Origin: Gracilariopsis chorda
Taxonomy: Eukaryota > Rhodophyta > Florideophyceae > Gracilariales > Gracilariaceae
DNA: 64,000 bases
Assembly: GCA_003194525.1 (NCBI GenBank)
Contig: NBIV01000059.1
Span: forward strand, 234,847 to 298,846
Direction of reading: 5' to 3'
Shown here: one piece after another, positions 1 through 62,013 of the stretch
Position numbering within the stretch: the first letter of the stretch is position 1
How the letters are laid out: every line of letters starts with the position of its first letter
Notes under the pieces: model-generated
What the model saw: only the letters and a program-made list of their open reading frames with translations
Database searches by the model: none
What the model was told of the DNA's origin: nothing
Position numbers and translations under genes: made by a program

Positions 1-2640
1 CGTCACTGACTCAGTCATGTAGTTGGGACACATCATCCATCCAGGACGGCTAATGATCGAAGAAGCTCGTGTTAAGTCCTCCAAAGAGGGTAAGCACCGA
101 GAAACGCAGACGGAACTCTTTTTCTTTCTAGAACTTTGCAACGTCTACGGAAGCTTCATTGCCAGCTTCGCACGGATCGCGAGACCCCTCAACGACCTTT
201 TGAAGAAGGGACAGCCACCAAAACTGGAAACCCTTCCACCCGGTCAAGTGGAAGCCATTGTGTTCTCTCAGAAAGACCGCTACATGGGCCCCGATATTTT
301 CGTTGCCTAAGAAAGGTCTAACTTTTACGGATTTAAGTGATAACCCAGTCGGCTGTGTGTTATTCCAGACAAAACACGATGGGAAACTTAAGCCACCTGG
401 ATATTTGTCACGACTCTCAATGTTCATGACAGAAACTATTCTGTATCGGAAAAAGACTCTCTGGCTATGGTCTGGGCGTTAGAGGCGCTACAACCACACC
501 TTATGGGTACCCCACTTCAGCTTCAACACAGATCATTCCGCGTTACGCTGCCTTATGTCGATTACGGAGCGCTCGGGTCGCCTTATACGCTGGAGACATG
601 GGCTGGGCAAGTTCGACTTTGACATCTAATTCAAGAAGGGGAACCTCAACGCCCAAGCAGACGCTCTTTCACAATTAGGAACAGACGCTGAGGCTTTTCC
701 TCTCAAGGACGATGAGGAGTGTGGTACAGCCAGTGGGGAGCACAATGTCCTTAAAATAGGACTTTTAGATTTGGTCTAACAGATGGGTTCCAGTAGGTGG
801 TGGTTTCCCTAATATAGGAGCGGCGACCGGGGGAATCCTGAAGGGAGATCCGCAAGCACCAAGCGGATATTTGGTTCACTGGGCGGGCGATAATCCTACA
901 GGCGCTGCTATGGGACGCGCTGGGTATCGGTGGCTTAGAAACCACACCTAGAGGATGACGTGATAGTGTACCTGAATGTGAGTATCAAGAGGTTGAACCA
1001 GACGAACTATAACAAGCCTCGAGGGTGCATGGTATACTTTCACGGAGGTTGAGCTCCAACGGCACAGTAAATACAGTGCCACGAGCTGACCTCGACGAAA
1101 AATATCTACTGTACCCTATAAAATCTAAGTTAGGTTATTATACCTAGTTGAAATACAGTGCACTGGAACGATTCCTCTGGAGTGGTGTGCTACGTGGCAC
1201 CAGCTAGAAAATACAGATATTTCGGTAGGAATCATCCGTAACAGCCCATCTTTAGGATCGTATATAGTACCACTGTTCGAAAAGGAAGACATCCCCTGCT
1301 TCGTACTCAACGAGGTTTATTCAGAATACGATCTGATTACTGATGACATATGTGACGACATGCTTGTCGCAGACGAAGACGACTCCGACTTTTGCTTCTT
1401 CGTCCCAATCAACTTCGAGGAGATGCCACGCGAACAATTCAGAGATCCGCTTTGTACGAAGATACGGGCCAAGTAGAATTTCGGAGTTAGAATTCTCTTT
1501 GTTATTAACTCTCAAGAAGTCTTGGTCAGGAAGGTGCGCTCTATTCCACAGATCGTGATTCGCTATACGCCACAGTTGCTTGTCATAAAACTCTCAAATC
1601 ACTCAAACATGTCCGCTCATACTGGTGCCAGGAAGACGAACACGACGCTTCGCTGGGATTACTATTCGCGAGCATTAGCGATCGACTGCTACTCAATTTT
1701 GAGATCCTGTACTCACTGTCCTCGTAAATGAGTGCAGTTACGTCGACAAGCGAAGACGCTAACTCTCTTCCTGGCATAGGCCTCACTTGCGTTCGTGGCA
1801 ATCGATATACTCGATGAATACCTCCGCAATTTTCGTGGTAACAAGTTCTTACTTGTCATCAAGGACAGATTTTCTAAGTAGTTTCGGACAGTTCCGCTAA
1901 TGAAGATTACCTCTTGCAGTGTTGCGGCAGATTTTGTTCGTCACTAGAGCCTTTTTTCACGGCCCGCTGGTCAATATACTTTCGGATAATGGACCATAAT
2001 TTGTGGCTCGCTGCTTTGAAGACGTTTGTAGAATACTTGACGTGAGGAATCTCTCTACGACGACGTATCCCCCTCAATTAAATGGTAAAGTGGAACGGTT
2101 TAACCGAACGCTGCTATCTGCATTGCGGGACTATACGACAGAAAATCCAAAGACTTTGGATTTGTTTATGGATACCGTTACATATGCGTATAATACACAG
2201 GTCCAAAGAGTTACTGATCTGTCTCCATTCGACTTAGTACTCTTTCAAACCCCACCACCCGTAGAATTTGAATCATAACCTATGTTGGATCGATTCTTGC
2301 CTCCGACGGATCACTATATCTAATGGAAGAATTGGCTCACAACCATCGTTCCTTTCGCCCGATCGTCAAGGGCAAAATCCCAACGGCCTTACAAGCGTAG
2401 CTTCAATGCTCGAATTTGCCGACAAATTCCAGACATTCATAAAGGACAGCTAGCCTTCTTAAGAAAAGAGTTTTAAAATCTCGAGAAGGAAAAGCGACAC
2501 AAACTCTCTCACATCGCGGATGGCCCCTACAAGATCATCTACGTTGAAAAGGACACAGTTTTGTTAAAATGGTGATGATCACGAACGCTTTTCTTGAGAT
2601 CGAGAGGTTCAATGCCCATATTCTATCACAGAAGTTCTTT
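1..2640 (+). pseudogene. Decayed Ty3/gypsy pol: end of RT, RNase H, integrase
   Basis: This stretch once encoded the second half of a gypsy polyprotein. The window opens inside the RT thumb region: frame at 23-310 carries 'HIIHPGRL' and 'RTQTEL'-like positions that match the complete gypsy copy at 55.6-57.3 kb almost residue by residue. Pieces of RNase H and the integrase zinc region follow in broken frames. The clearest block is 2003-2278, with the integrase segment around the catalytic Glu ('NGKVERFNRTLL') and the 'AYNTQVQR' motif. Stops and frameshifts occur throughout, so it is dead. The reading strand is +, opposite to the complete copy. Identification is by direct comparison with that copy and by known gypsy integrase motifs. 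Confidence 0.85.
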
Positions 2641-3850
2641 AGGACCGTAATGGAACGGATGAGACAAACGTCCCCAATTCCTCGGAAAAGGCATCGTCAC
2701 AACCCCAATAGGGCTCTCTAACCCGTGGAGGGGACTCTCGGACGTACCTACTTTTTCTACTACTGAGCCGTCGGTTACCAACCGCCTCGTTCGCTCTCGC
2801 TCTTTAAAGCCTTTTATTCCTTCGCCAGACGTGCTTTCATCCCCTGTTGCTCCGCTTAAGGAGGGGGAGGGGATAGATAGCCGCAGCGATAAACACTACC
2901 GGTGTCGCAACCGTTGGTTACTGCTCGTGACACACGAACTGCCAACGTGCATTCACTGCACAGACCCGCCCAGGACGACACAGTGACGGATACCCCGGAT
3001 GCTGGCACTGAAACCTTGCAGCGTAACGGTGATGCCAAGGGCATGATCCCACCCCCAGTAGAGAGGGAAAAACTCGACGATAAGAATACTTCACCGCCCG
3101 TCACAGGGAAGTCACGTCAGCAGGCTGATACACGCAATTACGTCGGAGACGTTACTTCCAGTACAGCTGTATTAGACCTGCAGTCAGAAGAAACTGCCAA
3201 CCACCGTCGGGAACCGTCACCGATCTCGCCGAGAAAGAGCGTGATCAACACTGCCCCAACTGGGAATGGTAGCCCAGGAAAACCGATTGAAAATGCAGTC
3301 GAACACCAGGTTACACCGTCGCCAAGTTCCCACCTTGTGGAAGCCCCACCGTCTTCCCGAGCTCGCGGGCAAACCAGGGCTGTCACGGCGGACCCGGCGT
3401 TATCAGTTCCCTGAAGGATAACATGACACACAATACGGTGGATCGTACTCACCCCAGCATGGGTCGGGATAAGTGATCACTGCCATGGCGTGGATGACGC
3501 CTACCTAATACGCATCAAAATGGCACAGGAGACCCCGAAATGGATGGTTTAGCTTTTCACCGGCGCACTGTAGGGTTGGAAAGCAATGCAATGCAAACGC
3601 AGATGGAACGCCGCACGCCCCGTCACGTGACGTGCGCCGTGCACCACCTCGTGGAGGCCTCAAATTGGAGTCACAAACCGTTGCTGACGACAGGGGCCAC
3701 ACGTCGCACGACAGTGCATGGGGCTTCGGTCTCACCAATCCCCTTCCTGAGCCCAAACCGTCGAAATTAGGACAGCAGTACCTAAGCAAACTCGTGTTGA
3801 AACTGTCGGTCGCAAATGTTGCGGAATGTTCCAGACATTGCTGGAACACA
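2641..3850 (+). pseudogene. Decayed pol linker region of the gypsy remnant
   Basis: The longest open frame is 2902-3414 (170 aa, begins at a non-ATG codon). It is hydrophilic and rich in Pro, Ser, Thr and charged residues, with no recognisable domain. Its place after the integrase and before the chromodomain at 5.0-5.26 kb matches the long disordered linker in the complete element at 53.2-55.2 kb. I infer that it is the same linker in decay, because it is too divergent to align by eye. Frames at 3540-3877 on the same strand may continue it. Confidence 0.5.
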
Positions 3851-4860
3851 CGTGTCGAATGTTTCAGTAGTGTCTAGCACATTGCACGCTTTGTTGGCCC
3901 AGCAAAAACTACAGTATTTTAGTGATGCTGGCGCAAATTGTCGCTTTATTATTGGTTAGTGTGCAGCTCCAGAGGTCTCTAGAAGCCAATGGAGTAACCT
4001 AGACGCACACATGAGTAACTAGCAAGTAGAAATGCGTATTTGGCTCGTTTGTAGTGCCTCTAAACACTATAAGAAGAGATTCTGAGCTTCGGACTTCGGT
4101 CTGAACTCACCTCAACAATCGACCAACATCTAAGCCCCACCCCCTATCAACCTTCAGCCACTTCAACTATCATCAACAACCAGTGAGGCGTTCGCCGCTG
4201 GATAAAGGGCTTCTAGTGAGGCGTGTGCCGCTAGTTGTCCAATAGGGTGGGGAAGTACCGTCGCTAAGACCGGTTGAAGCGCCTTAGGCGTGGAAGGGAG
4301 ACGGTTAGTGTGTACCAAAGGTGTTTCTGTCATCTGTGAGCCCCACCAGAGCTTTGCTCGGATAACGGTGTCGGTCGAAAGACCTGGTGATTTCCGGACG
4401 GAAGTACTTGAAGGGAAGCTATACGCAGGCGACGTGCCGTGCAACCTTTCCTGCAAAGGGCCAGCTTGGGTATAGAGTGAAAGCATATCCCGCTGTTAGT
4501 AGCTCTCCTCGGGAAGCCCTGTAAGGATTGTATGCGCCTGCTTCTGGTTAGTGCAGAGGTAGGTAGGCTGCAGAATCCACTTCACATCCGGAGTGTCTGA
4601 CCGGAAGCCGAGGGTCTGACCCTTAGTGATCCTTGATATAATTCTTGGGTTGCGCGCCGTTTCAACAAGAAGTTAAGAAGTTTTATTTGGGGATTGAGCC
4701 TCTTGCTCTCCCTAGTGTTGTTTTATTTCATCGAGTGGGTTTAGTTCTTTTGATCCCACTGTTTTCAACTTGTTTTGGGGCTTTTAGCTACGAAGAGCAC
4801 CCTTTTGGCTTTTATTATTACAACTTTTTGGCCCCCTGCGTCACAGTCCCGTGATGGCGC
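3851..4860. other. About 1 kb without genes, possible LTR-like insertion
   Basis: No coding sequence is supported. The stretch interrupts the gypsy remnant between linker and chromodomain. It holds a TATA-like 'ctataagaag' near 4068 and a short direct repeat, 'agtgaggcgt' followed by 'gccgct', at about 4182 and 4217. It could be a solo LTR of another family, but I could not find matching target-site duplications or secure TG/CA ends. Confidence 0.3.
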
Positions 4861-4989
4861 CCACAGAAACCTTTTAGTGTTGAGGAACCGTCATCGCCCT
4901 ACTCAGTGAGTGCGACCTCCAACATGCTCATGCGGAAGACAGTCTTGCTTCCATCGCCACCTACGGACCAGGAAGTGGTAACCTAACCG

Positions 4990-5259
4990 ACTAGGTCACT
5001 GGAACATACTGTGGACAATACGGACGATGGTACTGCTAAGCAGGGTGTGCATGCGCAGGAGTTCTTCATAGACCACATTGTGGGAAATAGTTACAACAAA
5101 GATGGGTTCATCAATTACTGTATCCGATGGTTCGGTTACCAACTCTCAGCAGATACGGATGAACCGGTTGAGCACTTGCCCCCATCGAATATCGTGCAGT
5201 CTCATCGCCCCGGCGAATTACAAATGCCACCGAACCTTGATCGCGCCCTCGTCGGCTAA
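4990..5259 (+). pseudogene. Chromodomain end of the decayed gypsy pol
   Basis: Frame 5011-5259 (82 aa) encodes a chromodomain: a 'FFIDHIVG' opening strand, aromatic cage-like 'YCIRWFGY', then 'EPVEHLPP'. The complete element at 53.2 kb has the same order ('FVVDRLVG', 'YRVRWYGY', 'EPIEHLPR') and the same final residues before its stop. In chromoviruses this domain tethers integrase to modified histones. The conserved Trp after Asp-Thr in the intact copy is lost here (DTDEP for DTWEP), in line with decay. Confidence 0.8.
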
Positions 5260-5699
5260 CTCGACGCACATGCAGATGTACCAATTTCGGTCTCTAGAAG
5301 ATTGCAAAACATCCCAATGGAACGCAAAATGGACCACTACTGTGGAGAAGAGATCTTCAATTGAGGCAAAAGCCTCAGTTGAGGACGATGTAGACTCTGG
5401 AAGAGCAATTGGAAAGAGGAAAGATGGAAATTTTGGAAAATGGAGAAGAATCTCTGGAGAGAAGATGATAAGGCACTATAAGAATAGTTGGTAAGCTTTT
5501 TTAAGGAGGATAAGAAGAAGAAAATGATATGAGAAGTACAGTTTACTGTTGCTCATATCCATATCGCTACGCGCTAGCCGGGATCACGACAGCCAAGTTT
5601 TGGTGACTCACTAGGTATGCTCAGGAGAGTGGTTGCCCAGATTCCGGCTCAGTGCCGTCCTGGCCCATCTGCACCTAGCGCAGTCTTCGCATTTGGGAT
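5260..5699. other. Gene-free, purine-rich stretch
   Basis: From about 5330 to 5530 the + strand is strongly enriched in A and G (runs such as 'ggaaagaggaaagatgg'). It follows the gypsy chromodomain stop, where a 3' LTR would be expected, but it does not resemble the LTRs at 52 and 61 kb. I see no gene. Confidence 0.4.
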
Positions 5700-6930
5700 A
5701 CATCGCCTTAGGCGATCTCTGCAAGACCAGCGTTCTGGAGTAACTGATATATCACAGCTGCTTGCTGGGTCTCGGTCATCGCGGAAGCGAGAGAGGCACT
5801 CGTGGGAGGAGCTGCTGACGGCGGAGCCGAAGGAGGAATTGCAGAGTACGTCGTTGAGACCTCGCCACCACCACCGAGAGCATCTCCATATCCGGCCTCG
5901 GGAACGCCGTCCAACATTGGATCCTGTTTTTCAGTCGAATGGAAGAACTCGTCCGTGACGACAAAGCCAGTCGGGTGAACCGAAGATATGACTCAGCGAG
6001 CTTCTCACAACACCACCGCCTCCTCAGCACAGATCAAATTCCGTGCCCACGGATCGAAGTACACGAATTCACCTGCGAACGGGGTTCTCCTACTGGGTGA
6101 CCGCTCCATTGGATCGGGATCATCGTTGCGCGCTGCCAAAGCAACTGGTGTCTGGTTCCAATCCACATTGCCGATGATTTACAACAGCGCTATTAGTTCA
6201 GCGAAGTTCCCATTGCCTCCGACCAGAGGTCGAGCACGCAAATGCGCTGCCTCATAATCGGAGAAATGTACCAAATTTGATATTGGTCATAGATCTCTTG
6301 GAGGATATACATCGCCGTTTGTATGGCCCATTCCTTATAGACGACGGACCACCATCCCGAATACGAGTTGCTGAGAAGTCGGCTTCCAATATATGAGAGC
6401 ACGGGGGCTGCTCTAAATAGCACCCCCGGCACACCTCACACGAAGCCCACATCAAGGGGAGAGGAACGTATCTTCCACGCATGTGGCGGGGTCTGATCCG
6501 AGTCGATTCCATGTTCTGATAGGAAATGAGATATCCCCAATGGTAGTGACTGCGCAGTTCAAAACGGATGAACCGCTGCAGACACTGCGATCGCGACTCA
6601 CGAGGAAGATACCGAAATTAGGCACGCAACAGTGGACGCGTCCAACAAATCAGGTCTGATGCCCGTGGATACGGTCATACTGCTTGATACTGCTGGCTAA
6701 ACGTATGAGATTATCTCCATATTGGATCTCGCAGAGGTTTCGGTAGAACGCGATATCGAATCGGTAAGACGCATGTGTTGGACGCTCCAAGAACGTACGG
6801 TACAACCGTTGGTGCGCAATTTGAGTGAGTGCCGCTCGCGCTGCGACTGCAGCTGATCGTAACCCCATGTTCGATCCGGGCTGCCCGAAAATGGTAGGTG
6901 GTCTTTCCTCCATTTCGCATCTCTGCATGT
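5700..6930 (-). pseudogene. Unassigned decayed minus-strand coding region
   Basis: Several minus-strand frames look like broken coding sequence, not chance ORFs. 6930-6650 gives a hydrophilic helix-rich segment with 'AAVAARAALTQIAHQRLY' and 'QYGDNLIRLASSIKQYD'. 6432-6193 includes 'AMYILQEIYDQYQIWY'. The end at 5917-5708 is Pro/Ala-rich and closes with 'YQLLQNAGLAEIA'. The pieces lie in changing frames separated by stops. It may be a gag-like or host-derived gene in decay. It is antisense to the copia pol next door, so it is probably a separate element. No family recognised. Confidence 0.35.
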
Positions 6931-7018
6931 CACTTGGAATCTAACTCACCCTAGAAGAACTCGACTCTGAACCATTTCTGCATGGCTTTGGTGAAGAATG
7001 CCTAGATGCAAAACTCAC

Positions 7019-7165
7019 CTGTTCTATTTGGCGCTCAACGGGCAGGACGAGCATGGCGTAGATTTTTCCATTCCTTTCTATGTTATGAATGAACTTGGAC
7101 CTACTCTTATCGGTAATGATGTACTCTCTCCATCGAGCCTCCTCGGCGCATCAAATGAAATTTGA
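7019..7165 (+). pseudogene. copia aspartic protease, C-terminal part
   Basis: The frame starting at 7019 reads through 'FSIPFYVMNELGPTLIGNDV' to a TGA. The 'TLIGNDVL' motif corresponds to the conserved I/L-L/I-G-x-D element near the end of retropepsins. The catalytic D-T/S-G motif is not visible upstream. The fragment lies about 90 bp before the first integrase-like residues, as expected for a copia polyprotein. Confidence 0.5.
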
Positions 7166-7239
7166 GTCCCGGAAGAAGTAGTCAAAAACCCGTCTATTAG
7201 GATTCTGCTTCGCACCTACCACACTGGTTCGAACCTCAG

Positions 7240-8447
7240 CAAATGCACTCATCTTCTACTCGTTCCGTCATCTAGTGCAGCCATGAAAACCTTTCTCGCC
7301 AACCATCGGAGGAGAACACAAACAAGACGCCCATCGAAAGCGAAGAGCGTTTTGAAAAAAGGGTTCATCTATACACTCATCTGCGTGCGAAGGATATGAA
7401 AAAGATCTTTCAACGTGCTGGTGTTCTAACGAAGACGCTTGAAGTCCTTCTCGAAAATTCCTTCGAGTCCTGCACCGCATGTGCCAGCACAGGTCGACCC
7501 CTCGCTTCTCGAAAAGTCTCCCTCGCCCGTCTTCTTAAGAAGTTCAATGAACACGTTCAAGTGGACTTCATGTTCGTCGCCGAACTAGGAAACCTCCCGA
7601 TCCTCCATGTTAGAGATGCAGCCACTGGCTTCTTTATGGGATGACTCTCGTTCTCAACGAACATGAAAGAAGCAGCTCAAAACTTCGTAGTCCATTGAAT
7701 AATCATTCATGGACCCCCCTGCGAACTTTCTTGTGATCATGAGTTTGACTGTGAAGGGTTTCGAACGCTTTGTGCTTCTCAAAGCATTGGCTTCGCCCCA
7801 AGACCAGCGCGGGGCCATAAAAAACTTGCCGTCATCGAGTCCTCAAACGAAGCGATAAGATATCTTGTCCAACGCGTGGTCAAGGACAGGCAGTACACCG
7901 CATCTAACTGGCGGCAAACTCCGTCCGACCAAGAGTTTTTGGCAAAAGCAGTGTTTCTCAAGAACATCGTACTAGGTTCAAAGTTCCTTTCTAGCTTTGA
8001 ACTTGCTCGTAGTTGCAAAACTTCTCTCTCCAGACTCCCGAAGACAACCATCAGCAGAGAAGTCATTGCAGCATATCATGAACAAGCCGCCCGTCATGCC
8101 TTGCACCTATTCGTGAGAATAAAGAAATTGAAGTATCTCGACCGTACTCTACTCAAACCTCGGACTCCTGTCTACTATTTCAAGAACGGAGTTAAGAGAG
8201 GACAGTGGCACCCTGGTTTCATCAAGGGGGTATTCAAGCACTATGAAATAGTGTCCAGCACTGAAGACATTCAAGGATATTCGTACACCATCGCATTCGA
8301 AGATCTTCGACTCCGACCTCGCAACAAGTTGTTATTGGACGTTGAGAAACTGCAGCTCGGTCGGACTAATGAGACCGAAAAGGAACCGCAGCCGATCGGT
8401 GACTCCCTCGAGGAACTTCACCTACACTTGAACGAGAACCAACAATA
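7240..8447 (+). pseudogene. copia integrase
   Basis: The zinc-binding part is visible as His residues in 'HLYTHLRAK', then 'SCTACASTGRP' (7396-7500). The core begins with 'HVQVDFMFVAEL' (first catalytic Asp in 'VDF') and 'PILHVRDAATGFF'. Stops interrupt the frame at about 7642 and 7697. A 'CDHEFDCEGF' stretch probably holds the second Asp, and a Glu occurs in 'VIESSNEAIRYL'. The open frame 7876-8448 (190 aa) carries the C-terminal part with 'TPVYYFKNGVKRGQWHPGF', the small SH3-like fold typical of these integrases. The two in-frame stops make it non-functional. Confidence 0.7.
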
Positions 8448-52090: not shown

Positions 52091-52095
52091 ATTTT

Positions 52096-52922
52096 TGTGG
52101 TGCAATGCCCCAAAGGGGAAAAAAACCGAAAGACGTTCGGGATCTTCCTCTCACGAGGTGAGCCCAGTTGGGTAGAGCCCTCCCAGAGGTGTCACAGCAA
52201 AGCCGGTTTGTAAGACCAGGGACACCTGTCGCGACTCGCGCAGGGAGGTGAAGGCGAAGAATCGGTATCCGCGTGAGCGGGGTGTGATCCTCAGCAGCGG
52301 TATGTTTCCACGTAAGTGGGGGTGTGTGAGCGGATGCGCACACGAGGGCCGTGGATAGCGGGAGGTGCTACCCTAAAAAGGGGAAAAAGGAAGGGCGAAG
52401 AGGAGGAAGACAGGACGATGTGAGTCGCGAGAGCGACGAACAGATACGGCAATGCCGGTGGGCAGGACTCCCTATACAGGGCAAAACACCAATATGATTG
52501 GAACAATTATACTCCCAAGGATGGGCTTCTTTAGATGTGCAAGGGGGTTAGATGTCCCGTGGTTTACGGCGTTTCCCTCCAAGGAGGAGTACAGTACGCG
52601 CGCAAGCGGCAACAACTAGAGCCAATTCCCCAGGTTGGGTTCCCTTGTTGGGGAAGGTTTACTGGTGCGACGGCAGTGCGCCGTCGCACTAAGTACTAGC
52701 TTCCCAGAAATGGGTGTGAAAATAACAAATAATATTAACTAAAATACTCCACATTTCGTGGCAACATCCACTACTGTGGCCAACCGCCAAGTGACCCAAA
52801 ACCGTGTCCCACGTGTCCATACCCACCATTGTGGGGCGTATTTCATACACACACTACACAACCGATAATATCGGGAAAACGATGAAGTACCAGGAATCCC
52901 CCCCTGAGGGCGTTGCACTACA
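52096..52922 (-). repeat. 3' LTR of the gypsy element
   Basis: 827 bp. In the coding orientation it starts 'TGTAGTGCAACG' and ends 'CATTGCACCACA'. Nearly identical to 61195-62008. It contains many short inverted repeats such as 'ccccaaagggg' at 52108-52118. Confidence 0.95.
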
Positions 52923-52936
52923 TATCCCCCCCTTAA
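52923..52936 (-). other. Polypurine tract
   Basis: In the coding orientation 'ttaagggggggata' directly abuts the TG of the 3' LTR, as expected for the plus-strand primer of reverse transcription. Confidence 0.85.
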
Positions 52937-53178
52937 GACGGGAAAACGACCGCAGAAGCGGAAGGTTCCCAGACGAAAATGGGTGATAAAAACGCGTGCC
53001 CCGTCTCCGGTTCGTCTCTCCTGGCATAGCCAGCTATTGTAGTATAGTGTTGTGGGGAGCTAGCTGCTCCCTTGAATAAACTTTCCCGTTTAGAACGGTG
53101 CTTCTCGGTTGAGTTCCCCGTCTTCAACGGACCTTGCCTTTGTATCCTTTCCTATCGCTCTCCGCTCGCGCGGCAACG

Positions 53179-55263
53179 TTACCCAACTTGGGCATTAACC
53201 AGCGTGGCTGGGGCTGCAGTTCCCGTTTGACAGTGGTATCGCAGGACCTGCGACCGTGGGAGGTGTTCAATTGGCTCCCACGTATCCCCACTGGGGTTGT
53301 ACCCGTACCAGCGGACGCGGTATTGTAGAATACCATCCTGGTCCCAGGTGTGTCCGACAAGTCGGTCTACTACGAATTCTCGTTCGTAGACCTGCCGGCC
53401 GTGCCGGGTGGTGGTTGTATTTCCTTGTGGGGGCTGCCCGCTGTGCGGTATAATGCCCCTTAGCAGGGTGTTCGGCGATAACTCCGGCGTTGCCGTGCGC
53501 TGTGATAGCGGTCGCTGCTCATGCGGGAAGATATTTCTCAAGAGAGTGTGTGGTGCCATGGTTTTCACCGGCAAGTCATTCCCCATTGGGGCAGGTTCAT
53601 TTCCGCTTTCGCGGTATTGCGGGCGAACCGCCAGTCGGCGGGGGACTTGGGCTCCGCCTTCGCGGTTGAGCTCACGAACCACGAGTTTGCGGGAAGATGA
53701 CCGCTCCTGTGGAATCGGCATTCCCACAATCCCCTGGTGGGTCCCGTGCGACACGGTGATTGGGTGGCAAACCGCCTCCCTGCCAGGCGCACGAGCGCTC
53801 TGCACCATACTTTCCGGTGATGCCGTGGTGTCCCCAGCTACTGACGGGCTGCCTGGGGCTAACTCCGATACACCGGTATTTTGGTCAAAATTCCCCTTTG
53901 GGGGGTGCCGGGCAGGTGCCGATGACACCCTTTTCAGGGGCTTGGCCGCTAAGTGCGGTGCACCGTCTCCACGCGGAGGAGCAGCGTCCGGTATGACCGG
54001 TTTCGAGCGTGGGATGGCGCGCGTTTTTTCCGAGTTCCTCGGTTCTTCGCCGCAGCGTTGCGGGGGTTGGCACAAATTATTCCCTGGCACGAGGGCTTCA
54101 ATTCCGTCGAGGACGGGAGGCGTTTCCGGCGCTTGCGGGCCAGGGCCTGAAGCTTCGGCTGCGGCTTGGCTGCCTTTTTCCCCAGGTTGGGTGTGGGGAT
54201 TTCCCAGCGGCGCTGGTGTATCTGGGCGCCTCTTCTCCGCAAGGCGCGGGTCTGATCGACATGAGTGAACCGCTTCCACAGGGACTTCCGCAAACGGCGG
54301 CTTCGAGGCATCGCCCTGCTCCGGGGATTGGGGGCAATCGTCACCATACTCCCTTATCGGGGATCCTTCCCTGACAGGGGTGTGCGGTAGTTGTGCTTCA
54401 ACTTCCCGTATAGCACGGTATATTTTCCGCGTTTGTGGCGATGCCTCCGGGGATGGATCGGGCGATTGCATTTCCGCTGCTGCGGTATTGGAGGGAGGCT
54501 TCTCGTTTTCACGTGACAAACGGTGTATTTGCCGCTTTTGCGGGACCTGCGCGTCTGGTTCCTGTTGCACAGCACTGCCCGGGAACGGGGGATTAGTGTC
54601 GCGTGACATACTCCGTGCTCCACGGTCAGTGTTCCGTATATTACGGTGTGTTTCCCGTTGCGACGGCGATATCGTTCCTCGAAAACGAGTGTTCTCCTCC
54701 CCCTCCTTAGACGGAGTGGCGGGATAAGGGATAACATTCCCCGCTTGGCGGGTATAAATGCGCGCCAATGGGGCGGGCGTGGTAGGAGCGGGCGCTGAGA
54801 GGCCCGAATTACCCGGCTGAGCCGGTGAATCCGATAGGGTCGGTAGGTCTGAGAATCCCCTGCTGGGGTGTGGTAGTACCGTAGGCCTAGTACTCCCGGA
54901 TGATTCCGGTGTTGCAGAGTCCGTAGAAACGGGGTTGCCTAGATCCAGGACTACCTCTGACGAGGGAGGAGGGGCAAGGACAACACGATCACGGGAAATC
55001 CGTTCGTGCGTGTCGCCCATCTCTACCACGACAGGGTCGGTGTTCACAGAGATGACCTTGAATGGTCCATCCGCCACAGGCAAGAGTTTATGGCGCTTCT
55101 CTCGTTCCGGGTTGTAGTATTCCTTCCTGATGAAGGCGTAGTTATTTGCCCGAATCGGGGACGGTTTTCCTCGCAAGCGAGCGTCAAAATCCCGCTTGTA
55201 AGCGGCTTGGGCCCGTGCCATAGACTTCCGCGCAGCGGGGACCAGCTTGGAAAGCCATTGCTT
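53179..55263 (-). pseudogene. Gypsy integrase tail, long linker and chromodomain
   Basis: Open frame 55221-53179 (680 aa) continues pol after a TGA at 55261-55263. It begins with the integrase C-terminal G-P-F/Y module ('AYKRDFDARLRG', 'KLLPVADGPFKVISVN'). About 500 residues of Pro/Ser/Thr-rich, mostly charged and apparently disordered sequence follow. A chromodomain closes the protein at about residues 610-660 ('YEREFVVDRLVGHTWDQDG', 'YRVRWYGYNPSGDTWEPIE'). It has the aromatic residues expected to bind methylated histone tails (Tyr/Phe, Trp, Tyr). In most chromoviruses the chromodomain follows integrase directly, so the linker is unusually long. The decayed copy at 2.6-5.26 kb has a matching space. 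Confidence 0.88.
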
Positions 55264-57844
55264 TCATTGCTGCCGGTAGATACCCACAGATAAGAAATTT
55301 TCCAAGGTAGCTTGGGGTCCCAGCGCCACAGGCGGGGGTGTTCTAGATAGAACCAACTCGAATGGCGAAACTCCGGTAGTCCGGTGTACCTGCGTATTGT
55401 ACGTGTAGGTTACCGCATCAGCATACATGTCCCAGTTCTTTGGGTGGTCTGCGACGTAGGAACGTAATGCCGCGAGTAACGTCCGTTTAAACCGTTCAAC
55501 TTGCCCATTACACTGGGGGTGGTAGGTAGTCGTGAACAAGTTCTTGACATCCAGGATGCGACAAACATCCTGGAAGAACTTGCTCACGAACTGTTTCCCG
55601 TTATCGGAGAGCACCTCCACAGGGGGACCGTAGACAAAAAATCCAGTGCGTCACCAGAGCCTGGTCCACCGTTAGAGCGGTTATCCTCCGAAGAGGGACA
55701 GTCCGTACCAGCTTAGAAAAGCGGTCGGTAATGACATGTAGAAACTTGTTTCCACGTTTCGTGGTGAGTAGTGGTCCGAGAATTTCGATCGCGATAAACT
55801 CGAGCGGCGCCCTCGCGGGGAATAGTTTCATCTTCTTTGCATTTTTGCGGAGCTTGACGCGATTCTTCGCGCATTCGCTACAAAACCGCACGGTTGCGTA
55901 CCAATCCACCGCCATGGCGGGCCAATAGAAATCCCTTCGCAGGGTTAGGTAGAGTTTCCTCCCACCTGGGTGACCTCCAATGGGGGCGTAGTGTGATAGA
56001 TGTAACACCCGCGACTGCAGGGAATGAGGTACCACAATCTGTGGGCGGGCTTCGAACTTCCTTACGAGGTAGCCTTTGTCGTTTACCCCGAAAGCGAGAT
56101 CTTCACCACCGTTAAGACGGGCACGAATCCTCGTACAGAATGGGTCGCCGAATTGTTCTCGGATCATTTCTTCCGGTGATACCGGTACAACGTTTCCCGG
56201 TAACGGGTTCTCAGATTCATCTCGAGATGCGAGTAGTTCGTCAAAATCAGCATCCTCGTCCCAGTTTTCTGGCCCAGCCTCGACGGCACATTCCGGATCA
56301 TCCGGGTCTATGGCCATGAAACATGGGACTTCATCATCCTCCGTTGGGAGTGCTTCCCCACTTGTGGGTAACCGCGACAGAGCGTCGGCTTGGGTGTTCT
56401 GCGCGCCCCTTTTATAATTGACTTGAACGTCATATTCCGCGAGGCGGAGTCTCCAGCGCATGAGGCGTCCCGACGGGTCGGAGATATTCATCAACCACCT
56501 CAATGAGGAATGATCCGTGTATACGGTGAAGTGAATTACCATAAGGTAGGGGCGCAGAGTGGTCATCGCCCATACGACGGCCAGGCACTCTTTCTCCGAT
56601 ACGGAGTAGTTCCGCTCATGAACATTGAGCGAGCGCGACCAATAACCAATTGGGTGTCGTTTCCCCTCTGGGGTGGTTTGAAGAAGAGCACACCCGACTT
56701 GGTAGTCGCCTGAGTCCGTATCTACGGAGTATGGGAACCCAAGTTTTGGGAGATGTAGGATTCGTGCTGATGTGACAGCCTCCTTCAAGGAGTTAAAGGC
56801 TTCCGATTGCTCGGGCGTAAATGTTCCCAGCTTTGGGGGGTTCCCCTTTCGCAACAACGCGTTCAGGGGCGCCGCAGTATCCGAAACGTTCGGGATAAAC
56901 CGTCGATAGACGTTGACCAGCCCCAAAAAGGAGCACAGTTCCGTTTGAGTACGGGGTTCTTTCGCCTCAACGAGGGATTTGACTCGAGCTTTCTCGATCG
57001 CTAACCGTCCAGGACGGATAATGTGATCCAGATACTTCACAGTATCTGTGAAAAACTCGCATTTCCTCAACTTGAGGGTAATTCCCGCATCGCGGAGTAC
57101 GGTCAGCACGTCTCGGACGTGAGTGAGATGGTCGTCCAACGAGTTGGAGAAGATGATAATATCATCAAGGTAGACCAGACAACTCCGCCACTTAAAGCGG
57201 TTGAGTAGAATATCTACTGCACGCTGAAAGGTGGCGGGGGCGTTGGTTAACCCAAATGGCATCCGCTCGAAGCGCTAAGTTCCTTCGTGGCAGGTGAATG
57301 TGGTTTTATCGCGATCCTCCTGTCTGACAGGTACTTGCCAGTATCCCCAATTGGCATCGAGGGCCGTGAACACGGTGGCGTCTCCAAGGGAGTCAATGCA
57401 CTCGTCCATACGAGGGATAGGGTACGTGTCCCTAACGGTCACGGCATTGAGCCGGCGGTAGTCGACACAGAACCTCCAGGTTCCGTCGGCCTTCAAAGCC
57501 AGTACAACTGGGGATGCCCAGGGTGATTGAGCGGGCTCAATCACACCTGCGCGGAGCATCTTGTTCACTTGGGACTGCTCCTCTTCCTGAGCTTTCGGAC
57601 CTGCCCTGTAAGGGGGTTGTGCAACCGGTCGCGCACCGGGGATTAAATCGATCCGGTGTTCCGTTGCATTAATCTCCCCAAGCGAGCCATCCCACATTGT
57701 GGTGAATTCCCGTAACATGGTACGGAGTTTGTCGCGGTGCGACTCTGGCACGTGGCTGAAGTCCAGCGCTTCAAGTGCTTTTTCCGGATCAATCCGGTCG
57801 TTGCTCGATGGAGCATTGTCCTGTGGAACAGGTGTGGTTCGCAA
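55264..57844 (-). pseudogene. Gypsy reverse transcriptase, RNase H and integrase core
   Basis: RT starts in frame 57844-57275: 'GVIEPAQSPWASPVVLALK', 'WRFCVDYRRLNAVT' and 'FTALDANWGYWQVPV' (first Asp). A TAG then replaces the Tyr of 'GTYRFERMPFG'. Frame 57262-55601 continues with 'MPFGLTNAPATFQRA' and the active site 'YLDDIIIFS'. RNase H shows 'YSVDTDSGDYQVGCALL' and 'FTVYTDHSSLRWLM'. Integrase has the zinc residues in 'HLSHYAPIGGHPGG' and 'CSECAKNR'. The first catalytic position is Glu ('FIAIEILGPL') where Asp is normal. The frame shifts in a run of six A (plus strand) near 55630, then 'SDNGKQFVSKFF' (Asp) and 'QCNGQVERFKRTLL' (Glu) follow. Confidence 0.92.
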
Positions 57845-57886
57845 TTCCGAGTTACTCGGTATGTTGGACGCTGAAGTAGCGGTTTC

Positions 57887-58717
57887 CTACCCCTCCTTAT
57901 ACTTGACGTCTTCGGACGGCGGGGCGAACTCCTCAGAAGAGGTGGTAACTCCGAGTACATCGGCGGCTGTCATCTTCGTTGGCAGCATTCCCATAGGATG
58001 GGGGGTTACACTCCCAATTAATTGGGGTTTTACCAGATACTGGGGGTGTTTGCCAAGGTTGGCAACCAATATCCGGAAAGGAACATCCGGGGAAATAGAG
58101 ACAATTCCATTAGCCAGCGCCAGCTGGGATTTCTCGTACAACGAGGCGAGGGGTTGTATAACCCGAAGACCGTGTTGACGGGAATTTACCTGCACCCAGA
58201 CTTGGGACTCAGGCGGTATAGAAACCGAGGCAGCGACGCGGAGCTTGGTGAACTCGCGGGATGCGGGCGATGGTTCCTGCGCAGCAGGGAGCGGAACTTG
58301 TTTCCGAGAGGACCGCTTTAGAGGGCGGCGAACAATCGAAACCGACGATCCGTCGTCAAGTTCTACACGCCTGAGGCGGGGCCTGATTGCGTCGACAAAT
58401 CTGTCGAAGTAATCACATCCCAGTATCACTGGTGCTGCCAATGAACGGCAAACGATGAAGTCCAACTTCACCACAGAGGTACCAAGTCTCACGACGAGGT
58501 CCACTGTGCCCACCGTTTGTAACGGATTGTTGTTTGCATCCGAAATGTCGGGGACCGCGTTAGAGCGGCTACGAGACCGCACAAGCGGGGGTAGCAATGA
58601 TTCCACAACAAAGTTGGGACCTGCACCTGTATCCAGGACGGTGAGAAACCTCACCATAAACTGGGGATCAAGGCCAAGGTCGGCATATACCTTATAATTG
58701 CGCTTGGCCAAGACCAA
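57887..58717 (-). pseudogene. Gypsy aspartic protease region
   Basis: 276-aa open frame. 'FLTVLDTGAGPNFVVESLL' holds the D-T-G catalytic triad, and 'APVILGCDYFDRFVDAI' the second conserved element. The rest is a linker toward RT, with no further domain ('VWVQVNSRQHGLRVIQPL'). The start shown is not the original one: a TAA sits a few codons upstream, and the frame before it differs from gag. A ribosomal frameshift between gag and pol is possible, but not shown. Confidence 0.85.
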
Positions 58718-58904
58718 GAATCTACCGGAATCCGTGGGTTTTTACTCCGTATCCACGGGCCAAGCAACACACCGAGGTGCGCAGAGTCCACGTCAGCGGG
58801 GTCTTTCCTCGAGAAGACTTTCACCGGGGAGCGAGGCGAGGACGCCTCGGGCGCCAACAGCCTCATTCTTGAGGACGCCTCTCCCAAAGGGGAGACTCCC
58901 TCAG

Positions 58905-60800
58905 TTAGTTTTCCGCCTTCGGCGGTGGGTTGGTTTCCTCGACAAAGAGTGCTTCATCCCGTTCACGGGGGTTTCTATCTGCATAAGCGGGGGTTGCAAC
59001 GGATGGTTGCGCGATCTCCCGAATCGGGGTGTATGACGCTTGCCGCGCACGCGGGGTCTGTGGTAGGGCATGGGAAAAGTCCGTTTTAGCACGGAGGTAG
59101 GAAGCCGTCGGGACGGAACGTTTCTCCTCTGGAGTGAGGGCCTCATAATTTGCCACCACCTTGGCCATATCCTTCAGTGAACAAATACACTGAGGAGAGG
59201 TATGGCCATGGGCATAGCACAGGTGGCAAATGAGAGCCAATACAGCGACACGCGGATTATTATTCCGAGTATCGGAGAAGCGAACCGCAGGGCGGGTGTC
59301 AGTCCATCCAGGCCGTTGATACCGGGATTGACCGTTTGAAAACGGGAGTCGTTGGGGTTGAAGCCGACTGTTACCACCGTACAAAACGGGGTCTTCCGTT
59401 CCAGTATCACGGGTCATCTCCGTCGTTGACGGTAAATCACTGGTGGTTATCAACACACCATCCTCCTGCACCAAATGCACGGTACCAAATCCCTGTCCAG
59501 GGTTCCCATCCGCGGTGAGCGGGAGTGAGGAAGCTTCGCTTTCCAGCAACAACGCCTTGGCGGATTTAGACCGATTGTTCGGAGTTCTTGCACGGAGTGC
59601 ATCCCCTTCCGCTCGGGCGTGTTGGACCAGCTCGAGATAGGTGATCCTCCGCTTTTCCTCCCGATAACGGGTAAGTAAAATCCGGATTGCCGGGTCAATA
59701 CCATCGGTGAACATGGTACTGCGCTCCCCAGCGGGTATACGTTACCACATCTGTGGAAAGCCTTGTTAAGGCGCACCAAGTAATCGGTCTTGGTCTCTCC
59801 AGCACGCTGGCGTGTATCTCGCAAAGCGAGGATAGCCTGCTGAATAGCGGTGTTTGTGGCGTAGGAGCGCAGTAGATACTGCACAGCCTCCGGCCAGCAA
59901 GTAACTCCTCCCTCGGAGGCACGAGAAGACCCTCTGACAGAGTTGTATTGGTCCTCCGCCATTCCCCGTAAGAAATACGGTAAAGCCAAATAGGCTTGTC
60001 CCTCATTCATACCGAGGATATCGGCCTCCGCTACAAAGCGGGATAGGAAATCCAGTACTAGGACTGGGTCCTATCCAGTGAAATACTGGTTGCAGAGCGA
60101 GAGCTGCATTCGCTTAATGCATTCTCGCACCTTTCCCGTACCACGGGGCGTTCGTCCAAGTGACGAGTCTTCGAGCCGGTAGTACCGGTATGATAAAAGC
60201 TTCCGGTAATCTGGGTTTGTCGGTTTCAATTCCCGGAGACCGGGGTGTCTTCTCCCCTTCTGGCGGGCTGGGACCACACCTTCAGTGGCCGATGACCGCT
60301 TCGAGCGGGAGGAGTAGCCTCGCTTCTTGTCCTCTGAGTCGGAGTCCGAAGAGCTCGAGCTAACCGAATGGTTTTGGGATGAGTCCGACGATGTCGAAGA
60401 ATCGGAGTCCGAATATTTTCGGTGGTGTTTCCGTCGATGACGGCGTTTCTTCTTCCCAGAAAGCTGGTTGTTGTGCGACGCCTCGTTTACCGGATCACCC
60501 GGGGATGGTTTGTCCATGAGGACGAACTGCTCCAGCGTCTCCAGGTGGGCACGAATCCGATCAAATCGGGCTTCAACTCCTTCGATGAAGGTGGCAGGTT
60601 GTCCCAAAACTCTCCAACACGGAGTTGACGTCAGACCGTAAAATACGGAGTTCCTCGGCGATCTCCTTTACGGGGGTTGCCAAGACCACCTCTTGGAGTG
60701 ATTTTAGTTCCCCTACAAGGGTGTCATGGGCGGTCCACAGAGCGTGGACCTGGGATTCCAGGGAAGTCCCCTGGGGGGTGTTATCGCCCGTTTAACGGGG
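58905..60800 (-). pseudogene. Gypsy gag with zinc knuckle
   Basis: Pieces in three frames. The N-terminal coiled coil (about 60790-60600) has 'HDTLVGELKSLQEVVLATP'. 60607-60071 has a Lys/Arg/His patch and a Ser/Asp-rich stretch ('SDSDSSTSSDSSQNHSVSSS'), then a TAG. The capsid region continues in 60010-59714 ('VQYLLRSYATNTAIQQAILA', 'AGETKTDYLVRLNKAFHRCG'). After a frameshift, 59714-58905 adds the nucleocapsid knuckle 'CHLCYAHGHTSPQC' (C-x2-C-x4-H-x4-C). Gag would package element RNA into particles. The frame breaks make this copy unable to do so. Confidence 0.85.
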
Positions 60801-61169
60801 GTTTGAAGCCACGACAGCGGGGAGCGGGCCGGGGTGCCTGGGCACTGCGGCAACAGCCGGAGTCGATGCTGCATTCCCTGCAGGGGTGATAACGAGAGCA
60901 AAAGAAGGTTCCGGGGTTCCCGGTCGGGGGTATCATTCCGCGATGGAAGCGGCCCCAGTACGGCTGGAACTTGTCCGTATAAGGATACAGGGTACGAACC
61001 GAACATCGGAGGTGTCCGCGTTGTCGCGGGAGCGACTACGCGTAACCACTGGCTCCGCATCGGAGGGACTTCTCGACATGAGAAAATACCGTTACGACGG
61101 GGAACGATCACGGAACTTCCAGTAAATAAAAACAAACCTCGTAAGAGGGAAAACAAAAACCGATTCTAG
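60801..61169 (-). other. Gypsy 5' leader or gag start, uncertain
   Basis: Open frames exist (for example an ATG at about 61080, 'MSRSPSDAEPVVTRSRSRDN', stopping at 60946), but none connects to gag without a shift. It may be the untranslated leader or a damaged gag start. Confidence 0.4.
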
Positions 61170-61191
61170 GTCGGGAGACCACTTTGTGGTG
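61170..61191 (-). other. Primer-binding site
   Basis: In the coding orientation 'TGGTCTCCCGACCTAG' begins 3 nt after the end of the 5' LTR (spacer 61192-61194). TGG pairs with the CCA end of a tRNA. The match to tRNA-like sequence seems to run on into a T-loop pattern ('TTCGATT'-like). The tRNA species cannot be named from this window. Confidence 0.75.
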
Positions 61192-61194
61192 CAA

Positions 61195-62008
61195 TGCCCC
61201 AAAGGGGAAAAACACCGAAAGAAGTTCGGGATCTTCCTCTCACGAGGTGAGCCCAGTTTGGTAGAGCCCTCCAAGAGGTGTCACGGCAAAGCCGGTTTGT
61301 AAGACCAGAGACACCTGTCGCGACTCGCGCAGGGAGGTGAAGGCGAAGAATCGGTATCGGCGTGAGCGGGGTGTGATCCTCAGTAGAGGTATGTTTCCAC
61401 GTTAGTAGGGGTATGTGAGTGGATGCGCACACGAGGGCCGCGGGTAGCAGGAGGTGCTACCTAAAAAGGGGAAAAAGAAGGGCGAAGAGGAGGAAGACAG
61501 GACGATGTGAGTTGCGAGAGCGACGAACAGATACGGCAATGCCGGTGGACAGGACTCCCTATACAGGGCAAAACACCAATATGATTGGAACAATTATACT
61601 CCCAAGGATGGGCTTCTTTAGATGTGCAAGGGGGTTAGATGTCCCGTGGTTTACGGCGTTTCCCTCCAAGGAGGAGTACAGTACGCGCGCAAGCGGTAAC
61701 AACTAGAGCCAATTCCCCAGGTTGGGGTCCCTTGTTGGGGAAGGTTTACTGGTGCGACGGCAGTGCGCCGTCCCACTAAGTACTAGCTTCCCAGAAATGG
61801 GTGTGAAAATAACAAATAATATTAACTAAAATACTCCACATTTCGTGTCAACATCCTCTACTGTGGCCGACCGCCAATTGACCCAAAACCGTGTCCCACG
61901 TGTCCATGCCCACCATTTTGGGCGTAGTTCATACACACACTACACAACCGATAATTTCGGGAAAACGATGAAGTACCAGGAATCCCTCCCTGAGGGCGTT
62001 GCAATACA
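61195..62008 (-). repeat. 5' LTR of the gypsy element
   Basis: 814 bp, near-identical to 52096-52922 with scattered changes, for example 'gcaataca' for 'gcactaca' at the outer tip and 'gccgtcccac' for 'gccgtcgcac'. It is followed by the 'atttt' target duplication. Confidence 0.95.
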
Positions 62009-62013
62009 ATTTT

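What the first reader, a model, noticed from the sequence alone, without database searches (positions are those of the whole stretch)
52096..62008. The gypsy element is packed with tiny hairpins, often 5-3-5
In 57692-57963 alone I count eight short inverted repeats, about one per 35 bp. Examples: 'gtcgcggtgcgac' 57731-57743, 'ccggatcaatccgg' 57784-57797, 'cctgtggaacagg' 57820-57832, 'ccgagttactcgg' 57847-57859. The pattern continues: 'tgccaaggttggca' 58051, 'tcgacaaatctgtcga' 58392, 'ccagtatcactgg' 58420, 'ccgtttgtaacgg' 58513, 'ccgcttgtaagcgg' 55192, 'ccgccatggcgg' 55909, 'ccgccagtcggcgg' 53628. It also occurs in the LTRs ('ccccaaagggg' 52108). Many are exactly 5-bp stem, 3-nt loop, 5-bp stem. 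They lie in protein-coding sequence and in LTRs alike, and I do not see this density in RAD50 or other host genes. It could be selection for RNA structure (packaging, avoidance of silencing), a mutation process at replication or template switching, or a mobile micro-hairpin. I know of no named feature like it.
Basis: seen in the sequence. Interest (0 to 1): 0.75.

Follow-up and report, generated by a model that had tools for sequence, protein, structure and literature searches.

The report
Retrotransposon studded with same-shaped mini-hairpins
A jumping element in a red-alga genome carries about 140 tiny, same-sized hairpins spread evenly through its genes and ends, far beyond chance and unlike the neighbouring genes, which suggests that something repeatedly recognises this one shape.

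Summary
The Ty3/gypsy element (52096-62008, minus strand) holds 53 exact 5-3-5 hairpins against 6.2 in dinucleotide shuffles. Shuffles that keep codons and dinucleotides agree (19 vs 4.9, 35 vs 5.9, 12 vs 4.8); host ORFs are near expectation (10 vs 7.6). The unit is specific: 12-14 nt, 5'-CC...GG-3', no sixth pair. In pooled subfamilies, CC-closed 13-nt windows number 70 vs 1.7, the mirror GG...CC 0 vs 1.6. Density is more even than random, and no gap is under 5 nt (9.5 expected), apart from 3 overlapping pairs. Four subfamilies (68-88% identical) carry it, partly in place, partly at different sites. Singleton mutations hit stems normally, yet four-fold sites in stems are conserved between subfamilies D and A (0.09 vs 0.32); comparisons with subfamily B show no constraint. 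The other gypsy and copia loci examined, and a 50%-identical relative elsewhere, lack the class. Best reading: a selected recognition element repeated along the single-stranded genome, probably for Gag packaging or condensation. The binding partner is inferred, not shown.

The parts
52091..52095 (.). 5-bp target-site duplication ATTTT, left copy
   Evidence: sequence read
62009..62013 (.). 5-bp target-site duplication ATTTT, right copy
   Evidence: sequence read
61185..62008 (-). 5' LTR (TG...CA on the + strand); holds 9 hairpins of the class
   Evidence: the two LTRs differ at 35 of 824 aligned sites, 3 gap columns
52096..52922 (-). 3' LTR; holds 12 hairpins of the class
52096..62008 (-). the hairpin array: 136 non-overlapping C[C/T]...[A/G]G hairpins of 12-14 nt, 4-5 bp stem, not extendable by a further outer pair
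   Evidence: 115 internal, 9 and 12 in the LTRs; 139 before 3 overlapping ones were dropped
59187..59228 (-). Gag CCHC zinc knuckle CHLCYAHGHTSPQC
   Evidence: similar knuckles in related copies L040 and L042
57023..57268 (-). reverse transcriptase domain, later part (RVT_1)
   Evidence: earlier part matched in ORF 57278-57886
56432..56734 (-). RNase H-like domain of RT (PF17917)
55859..56032 (-). integrase zinc-binding domain H2C2
53251..53376 (-). chromodomain near the C-terminus of the integrase ORF
   Evidence: E 5e-10
57847..57859 (-). example 5-3-5 hairpin CCGAG-TAA-CTCGG
57820..57832 (-). example 5-3-5 hairpin CCTGT-TCC-ACAGG
57499..57511 (-). hairpin CCAGT-TGT-ACTGG; kept in subfamilies A, B and D with loop variation, in C with four of five pairs
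   Evidence: element position 4498
55302..55315 (-). hairpin with a compensatory difference: CCAAG...CTTGG here, CCAGC...GCTGG in subfamily B
   Evidence: element position 6694
55170..55181 (-). hairpin with a compensatory difference: CTCGC...GCGAG here, CTCGT...ACGAG in B, C and D
   Evidence: element position 6828

Best explanation
The element carries a selected, genome-long array of one stem-loop type (5'-[A/C]CC-N2-3, loop of 3-4, N2-3-GG-A-3', stem of 4-5 bp). Shown by sequence: the excess, the fixed size, the CC...GG orientation, the avoidance of a further outer pair, the spacing, and a mix of conservation and turnover between subfamilies. Inferred: the unit is read in a single-stranded form of the element (genomic RNA, possibly first-strand cDNA) by a protein that recognises the base of the stem. 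The likeliest protein is the element's own Gag, through its CCHC knuckle or a basic region, so that the hairpins act as many dispersed packaging or condensation sites that pack the RNA into virus-like particles and mark it off from host RNA.
For: Orientation: in the pool of the window element and one pol region each of B, C and D (related sequences, so not independent), 13-nt windows with a 5-bp stem opening CC number 70 vs 1.7, opening GG 0 vs 1.6. The CC/GG stack has the same energy either way round (nearest-neighbour rules, recalled), so stability alone cannot explain this. Further pair: extended 1, not extended 70, where shuffles give about one in five extended (0.4 vs 1.7). Flanks of the 13-mers differ by strand: right A 0.59, left T 0.15, against 0.39 and 0.21 in non-palindromic CC-N9-GG windows. 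Spacing: no gaps of 0-4 nt vs 9.5 expected, 3 overlapping pairs set aside; variance/mean 0.52 per 500 nt. All codon phases and both LTRs are used. Constraint in the replicating lineage: four-fold sites in D-defined stems differ from A at 0.094 vs 0.318 base-matched (0 of 5000 permutations), C-defined vs A 0.066 vs 0.324 (P 0.003), A-defined vs D 0.195 vs 0.302 (P 0.016), while singletons inside A are not much reduced in D-defined stems (23/274 vs 267/2702). Double changes keep Watson-Crick pairing in 20 of 38 cases vs 38 of 155 in slid controls (Fisher P 0.001, a guide only, since comparisons were made in both directions and count conserved hairpins twice). Lineage-specific: 26 of 30 other gypsy loci, many of them near-identical copies, are near the shuffle level and the 4 exceptions hold LTRs of this family; 12 copia loci have none of the CC class. 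A Gag zinc knuckle is present.
Against: G-U is not preferred to A-C among singly changed stem pairs (44 vs 44 in the CC class, 89 vs 96 otherwise; one-mismatch windows 17 vs 19 and 11 vs 14), unusual for an RNA helix under selection. Predicted folding is only modestly more stable than shuffles and nearly equal on both strands (mean z A -1.10/-0.87, B -0.25/-0.21, C -0.64/-0.53, D -1.08/-1.19); 66 of 139 hairpins form with P>0.5 on the sense strand, 63 on the other. No synonymous constraint in any of six comparisons with subfamily B, nor in D->C (0.206 vs 0.175) or C->D (P 0.28); A->C is P 0.09. Most kept CC hairpins are kept by identity, only 5 of 105 with a change. A relative at 50% identity lacks the array. 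No binding, expression or particle data; the link to Gag is inference.
Confidence: 0.45

Rival explanations
1. A copying process of the element's own reverse transcription (fold-back or template switching of nascent cDNA) makes and maintains short perfect hairpins, without selection for a function.
For: Only Watson-Crick pairs are favoured, G-U equals A-C; singleton mutations inside subfamilies ignore the stems, as expected if the process acts only during replication.
Against: Such copying should lengthen stems, but a further pair is avoided (1 vs 70), and it should not tell CC...GG from GG...CC; it predicts neither minimum spacing nor evenness. The both-arms result (7 of 7 multi-change cases) is weak, because most of those are in B, where gain and loss are not told apart.
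Confidence: 0.15
2. The hairpins are recognised by a host or element factor for another step (RNA export, protection from RNases, translation control or reverse-transcription pausing) rather than packaging.
For: Same sequence evidence for a recognised unit. Hairpins lie in the LTRs and all along the internal region.
Against: An array of about 140 is more than such signals usually need (general knowledge); no partner known.
Confidence: 0.18
3. General RNA structure is selected to escape small-RNA silencing or innate sensing (as in genome-scale ordered RNA structure).
For: Folding somewhat more stable than shuffles in A, C and D.
Against: The selected unit has fixed length, fixed orientation and a stop at five pairs; folding z-scores are small, near zero in B, and host 1-8000 has -0.46. 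Median gap between units is about 43-50 nt, so much of the RNA stays open.
Confidence: 0.1
4. The hairpin matters as single-stranded DNA (cDNA intermediate) or in both strands, for an integrase, helicase or ssDNA-binding protein.
For: No wobble preference; near-equal folding on both strands; three-base loops are well tolerated in DNA hairpins (recalled).
Against: Flanks are strand-asymmetric. Two nested insertions in related copies gave no sign of hairpin targeting, far too few to decide.
Confidence: 0.1
5. Composition, codon use or chance.
For: The element is GC-richer (about 0.55) than the rest of the window (about 0.48).
Against: Dinucleotide and codon shuffles, mirror-orientation controls (genome-wide 3017 vs 105 and 1602 vs 52), other retrotransposon loci.
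Confidence: 0.02

Closest known systems
Dispersed RNA packaging signals of single-stranded RNA viruses (MS2, picornaviruses, HBV pregenomic RNA; passages of PMC6281560 seen)
   Same: Many dispersed stem-loops sharing a motif along the genome, proposed to be read by the coat protein
   Different: In MS2 the motif read is in the loop and a bulge ((x)xYA loop plus a bulged A, per PMC6281560); here loops vary and the base of the stem is fixed, units are near-identical in size and about 140 per 9.9 kb. No binding shown. The carrier is an LTR retrotransposon, for which seven paper searches listed no such array by title and abstract start
Retroviral or Ty-type packaging signals near the 5' leader (recalled)
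   Same: Stem-loops recognised by Gag, partly through zinc knuckles
   Different: Those are few and local; here they cover the whole element
Genome-scale ordered RNA structure of persistent RNA viruses (recalled)
   Same: Genome-wide excess of structure in coding sequence
   Different: That is a general folding excess; here a discrete unit of set length and orientation with only a modest folding excess
Mobile GC-rich micro-hairpins of mitochondrial genomes, and HIP1-like iterated palindromes (recalled)
   Same: Numerous short palindromes in a genome
   Different: No sign of inserted units and not one sequence: stems vary while complementarity and the CC...GG base stay

Membership tests
Ty3/gypsy (chromovirus-type) LTR retrotransposon | two direct LTRs with TG...CA ends and a short target duplication | tested here: met
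   52096-52922 and 61185-62008, TSD ATTTT
Ty3/gypsy (chromovirus-type) LTR retrotransposon | pol order RT, RNase H, integrase | tested here: met
   RVT_1, RT_RNaseH, Integrase_H2C2 in order; the ORFs of this copy are interrupted
Ty3/gypsy (chromovirus-type) LTR retrotransposon | chromodomain at integrase C-terminus | tested here: met
   PF00385 E 5e-10
Ty3/gypsy (chromovirus-type) LTR retrotransposon | placement in the chromovirus clade by a tree | not tested
   only homology searches were made; the named proteins near the top are mostly red-algal
Dispersed packaging signals | repeated stem-loops of one motif along the genome | tested here: met
Dispersed packaging signals | motif kept by selection despite coding constraint | tested here: inconclusive
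   seen in D->A, C->A and A->D, not in comparisons with B, nor in D->C or C->D
Dispersed packaging signals | specific binding by coat or Gag protein and a role in assembly | not testable with these tools
   needs binding and particle assays
Genome-scale ordered RNA structure | marked genome-wide folding-energy excess in the genomic strand | tested here: inconclusive
   mean z -1.10 (A), -0.25 (B), -0.64 (C), -1.08 (D), nearly the same on the other strand
Mobile micro-hairpin | hairpins present or absent as inserted units | tested here: not met
   at 50 of 60 sites all groups align with on average at most 4 gap characters; 10 sites have a gapped group and were not judged

The most novel reading that the evidence does not exclude
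An LTR retrotransposon lineage has turned its whole genome into a regular array of one structural code word, a 12-14 nt CC...GG stem-loop, read by its Gag or by a replication protein. The array coats and condenses the single-stranded genome; in subfamily A it may even lie on a lattice of about 20.5 nt.
Probability: 0.35. Interest if true: 0.92.

Novelty: new variant of a known kind. Interest (0 to 1): 0.8.

Why it matters
If the array is a binding code, it would be an unusually clear sequence footprint of genome-wide packaging signals in a reverse-transcribing element: dense, simple, and present in four subfamilies of one genome. It would make the packaging-signal hypothesis testable with short RNA hairpins and one recombinant protein, and would show how synonymous sites of a transposon can be shaped by such a code.

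Tried and rejected
Composition or codon effect: rejected. Genome-wide host mutation bias: rejected, since the other gypsy and copia loci examined and the host ORFs lack it; host 1-52000 shows a slight excess (C[C/T] class 57 vs mirror class 27). The 30 gypsy and 12 copia loci include many near-identical copies, so they stand for fewer families. Four other gypsy loci with a modest excess turned out to hold LTRs of this family. Inserted micro-hairpins: not supported. A protein-bound double-stranded DNA dyad with a fixed word: unlikely, stem letters vary. Integration targeting of hairpins: only two nested junctions seen, no support either way. Loop deamination: loops carry more singletons than other sites in A (27/165 vs 246/2503) but with no one mutation type.

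Arm test: of 19 one-subfamily hairpins, 7 differ at two or more stem sites and all 7 on both arms, 7 differ at one site, 5 show no polarised change. 6 of the 7 are in B, where the direction is unknown, and the seventh site holds a shorter hairpin in B too; I therefore give it little weight.

Rfam: nothing reached a curated threshold; three weak matches, one of them outside the element. Scans of viral and prokaryote contigs with the protein found no relatives, nor did the alignment in viral contigs; the alignment in prokaryote genomes gave one, L075.

Rows dropped: one search left out L052 (short); one search left out L039, hits under 150 columns, plus-strand hits and stems over 6 bp, and counted each pair of sequences in both directions, with one LTR of L042 aligned to both LTRs of the window; one search left out sites with gaps, with fewer than two ungapped other groups, or present in 20% or more of another group; one search merged neighbouring sites; searches dropped 3 of 139 units that overlapped another.
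Full report
WHAT IS THERE. The window lies in a 91.3-Mb unnamed eukaryote genome. Its RAD50 matches red algae best among named sources (Gracilaria domingensis 65%, Agarophyton chilense 64%), so the host is taken to be a red alga near Gracilariales; the species is not established. The element at 52096-62008 is a minus-strand Ty3/gypsy LTR retrotransposon with 5-bp target duplications, RT, RNase H, integrase and a chromodomain and a Gag CCHC knuckle. Its LTRs differ at 35 of 824 sites and its frames are interrupted.

IS THE HAIRPIN EXCESS REAL. Yes. Exact 5-3-5 hairpins: 53 against 6.2 in dinucleotide block shuffles; 4-4-4: 76 against 22.8. The host stretch 1-52000 shows 42 against 28.8.

WHAT THE UNIT LOOKS LIKE. 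The window element was pooled with one pol region from each of subfamilies B, C and D (related sequences). 13-nt windows with a 5-bp stem opening with CC number 70 vs 1.7 expected when not extendable and 1 vs 0.4 when extendable; windows opening with CT number 13 vs 0.6, with TC 9 vs 0.9, with GG 0 vs 1.6. 12-nt windows with a 4-bp stem and CC number 98 vs 6.1 (extendable 8 vs 2.4); at 16 nt the CC excess is gone (2 vs 1.8). Among CC-N9-GG windows, 71 have all three inner pairs against 2.2 expected; GG-N9-CC has 0 against 2.2. The base right of palindromic 13-mers is A in 59% (39% in non-palindromic ones) and the base to the left is rarely G (4% vs 22%; not so for 12-mers, 11% in both). Genome-wide, CCGTCNNNGACGG occurs 3017 times and its mirror 105; CCAGTNNNACTGG 1602 and its mirror 52; CCGN7CGGA 26126 against 7382 for the reversed pattern. 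These counts are not restricted to the family.

WHERE THE UNITS LIE. 136 non-overlapping units (13.7 per kb): 115 internal, 9 and 12 in the LTRs. Three further units overlap another and were set aside; by a looser definition 7 of 146 overlap, against 24 for random placement. All codon phases are used. Among the 136, no gap is 0-4 nt (9.5 expected from 500 random placements) and none 15-19 nt (8.5 expected), and counts per 500 nt are under-dispersed (variance/mean 0.52). A lattice of about 20.5 nt is suggested in the window element but does not replicate in subfamilies B and C.

WHO ELSE HAS IT. The copies of the same subfamily examined (L002-L008) all show it, 21-29 exact 5-3-5 in 4.7 kb against 2.5-3.2. 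In four stretches of contig C1 that I fetched because of dispersed hits, the hits lie mostly in a close copy (L039, about 94%) or in relatives 66-77% identical (L040-L042). Subfamilies A, B, C and D (representatives 68-88% identical in pol) all show the excess: hairpins of any composition per kb 33.1, 30.6, 20.6 and 26.7 against 11.0, 10.8, 9.8 and 10.2 shuffled; host 10.2 and 10.9 against 8.9 and 8.7. Of 30 other gypsy loci (3.2 kb each, many near-identical), 26 have 0-3 exact 5-3-5 hairpins, near the shuffled 1.5-2.8, and the 4 others contain LTRs of this family. Of 12 copia loci none has a CC...GG hairpin, with 0.5-1.4 expected each. A relative 50% identical in protein, on a contig of a Moorena bin that I take to be a eukaryote contaminant (L075), lacks the class: span-13 CC 0 vs 0.6, though it has another repeated hairpin downstream of pol.

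CONSERVATION AND TURNOVER. In 3.1 kb of aligned pol there are 60 merged sites fixed in at least one subfamily. Patterns: A and D 12; A, C and D 9; B only 8; A, B and D 7; A only 6; all four 3; the remaining 15 are other patterns, 10 of them with a gapped group. Examples with a compensatory difference are element positions 4323, 4734, 6694 and 6828. Where both members of a 5-3-5 pair changed, 20 of 38 cases are Watson-Crick, against 38 of 155 in slid controls (Fisher P 0.001, only a guide because comparisons ran in both directions). Most retained hairpins are retained by identity: in the CC class 105 of 213 site comparisons were kept, 5 of them with a change; in the rest 119 of 341, 25 with a change. 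Hairpins found in one subfamily only differ from the others by point substitutions, with gain and loss mostly not told apart. Four-fold sites in stems, base-matched: D->A 0.094 vs 0.318 (0 of 5000), C->A 0.066 vs 0.324 (P 0.003), A->D 0.195 vs 0.302 (P 0.016), A->C 0.273 vs 0.357 (P 0.09), C->D 0.105 vs 0.150 (P 0.28), D->C 0.206 vs 0.175 (P 0.72), and six comparisons with B with P 0.22 to 0.91. Inside subfamily A, singletons, which I take to be mostly post-insertion, hit D-defined stems at 23/274, C-defined stems at 25/178 and other sites at 267/2702 and 273/2832. The stems are therefore not mutational cold spots; they look protected in the replicating lineage, and that protection is visible only in comparisons with A of D and C. 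My inference is that C lost units and B replaced most of them.

HOW IT MAY WORK. A unit with one length, one orientation, a stop after five pairs and a minimum spacing points to recognition rather than stability. CC/GG and GG/CC stacks have equal energy (recalled), folding energies are only mildly better than shuffles and alike on both strands, and about half of the units are predicted to form locally (66 of 139 sense, 63 antisense). Strand-specific flanks favour the sense strand. The equality of G-U and A-C changes (44 vs 44, 89 vs 96) is the main result against a plain RNA helix: either one imperfect pair already counts as loss, or DNA or both strands matter. The element's Gag, which has a zinc knuckle, is the most economical reader, with dispersed packaging or condensation as the function. 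That step is inference.

COMPARISON. The nearest known idea is dispersed packaging signals of RNA viruses; I saw passages of PMC6281560, which describe multiple dispersed stem-loops sharing a coat-protein motif. Seven paper searches for such arrays in retrotransposons or red algae (two of them returned nothing) listed no paper that, by title and abstract start, describes it; only openly licensed PubMed Central papers are held. Two further searches on Gracilariopsis genomes gave listings that I did not read further.

LIMITS AND CHANGES AFTER CHECKING. One genome; subfamilies are not independent hosts; the DNA of relatives in named red algae could not be fetched; no expression or binding data. 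The unit was defined on the window element and then applied to the other subfamilies. On checking, the both-arms argument proved weaker than first written, so the copying rival went from 0.13 to 0.15 and the other-reader rival from 0.20 to 0.18; the best explanation stays at 0.45.

Noticed in passing
L075:6293-7948: A 50%-identical relative in a Moorena bin has nine 8-3-8 GC-rich hairpins downstream of its long ORF (e.g. CCGGCGCC-TAC-GGCGCCGG), with compensatory variants such as TCCGCGCC...GGCGCGGA: a different repeated hairpin.
   Followed up: partly
G000 contigs C10, C507, C509, C573 (places): Other gypsy families recur at a regular step of about 5.7 or 6.3 kb, suggesting tandem LTR-internal-LTR arrays.
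   Followed up: no
L039 near 5112 and L042 near 2951-3746: Two nested LTR insertions of this family sit at nearly the same place in a related element (element positions about 4308 and 4336-4342).
   Followed up: no
element sense strand 4754-4857 (window 57152-57255): Other palindromic words over conserved RT codons, such as TTGGTTTGACCAA and GATGATATTATCATC, are kept in several subfamilies though not of the CC...GG class.
   Followed up: no
window 1-52000: The host stretch has a slight excess of the C[C/T] class over its mirror (57 vs 27); decayed element pieces may explain it.
   Followed up: no
window 52503-52562 and 61590-61649: Weak Rfam pemK matches in both LTRs, plus strand, below threshold (27.3 vs 34.8 bits); probably chance.
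   Followed up: no
window element and L002-L008, pol region: Loops of the hairpins carry more singleton differences among A copies than other sites (27/165 vs 246/2503), without a single mutation type.
   Followed up: partly
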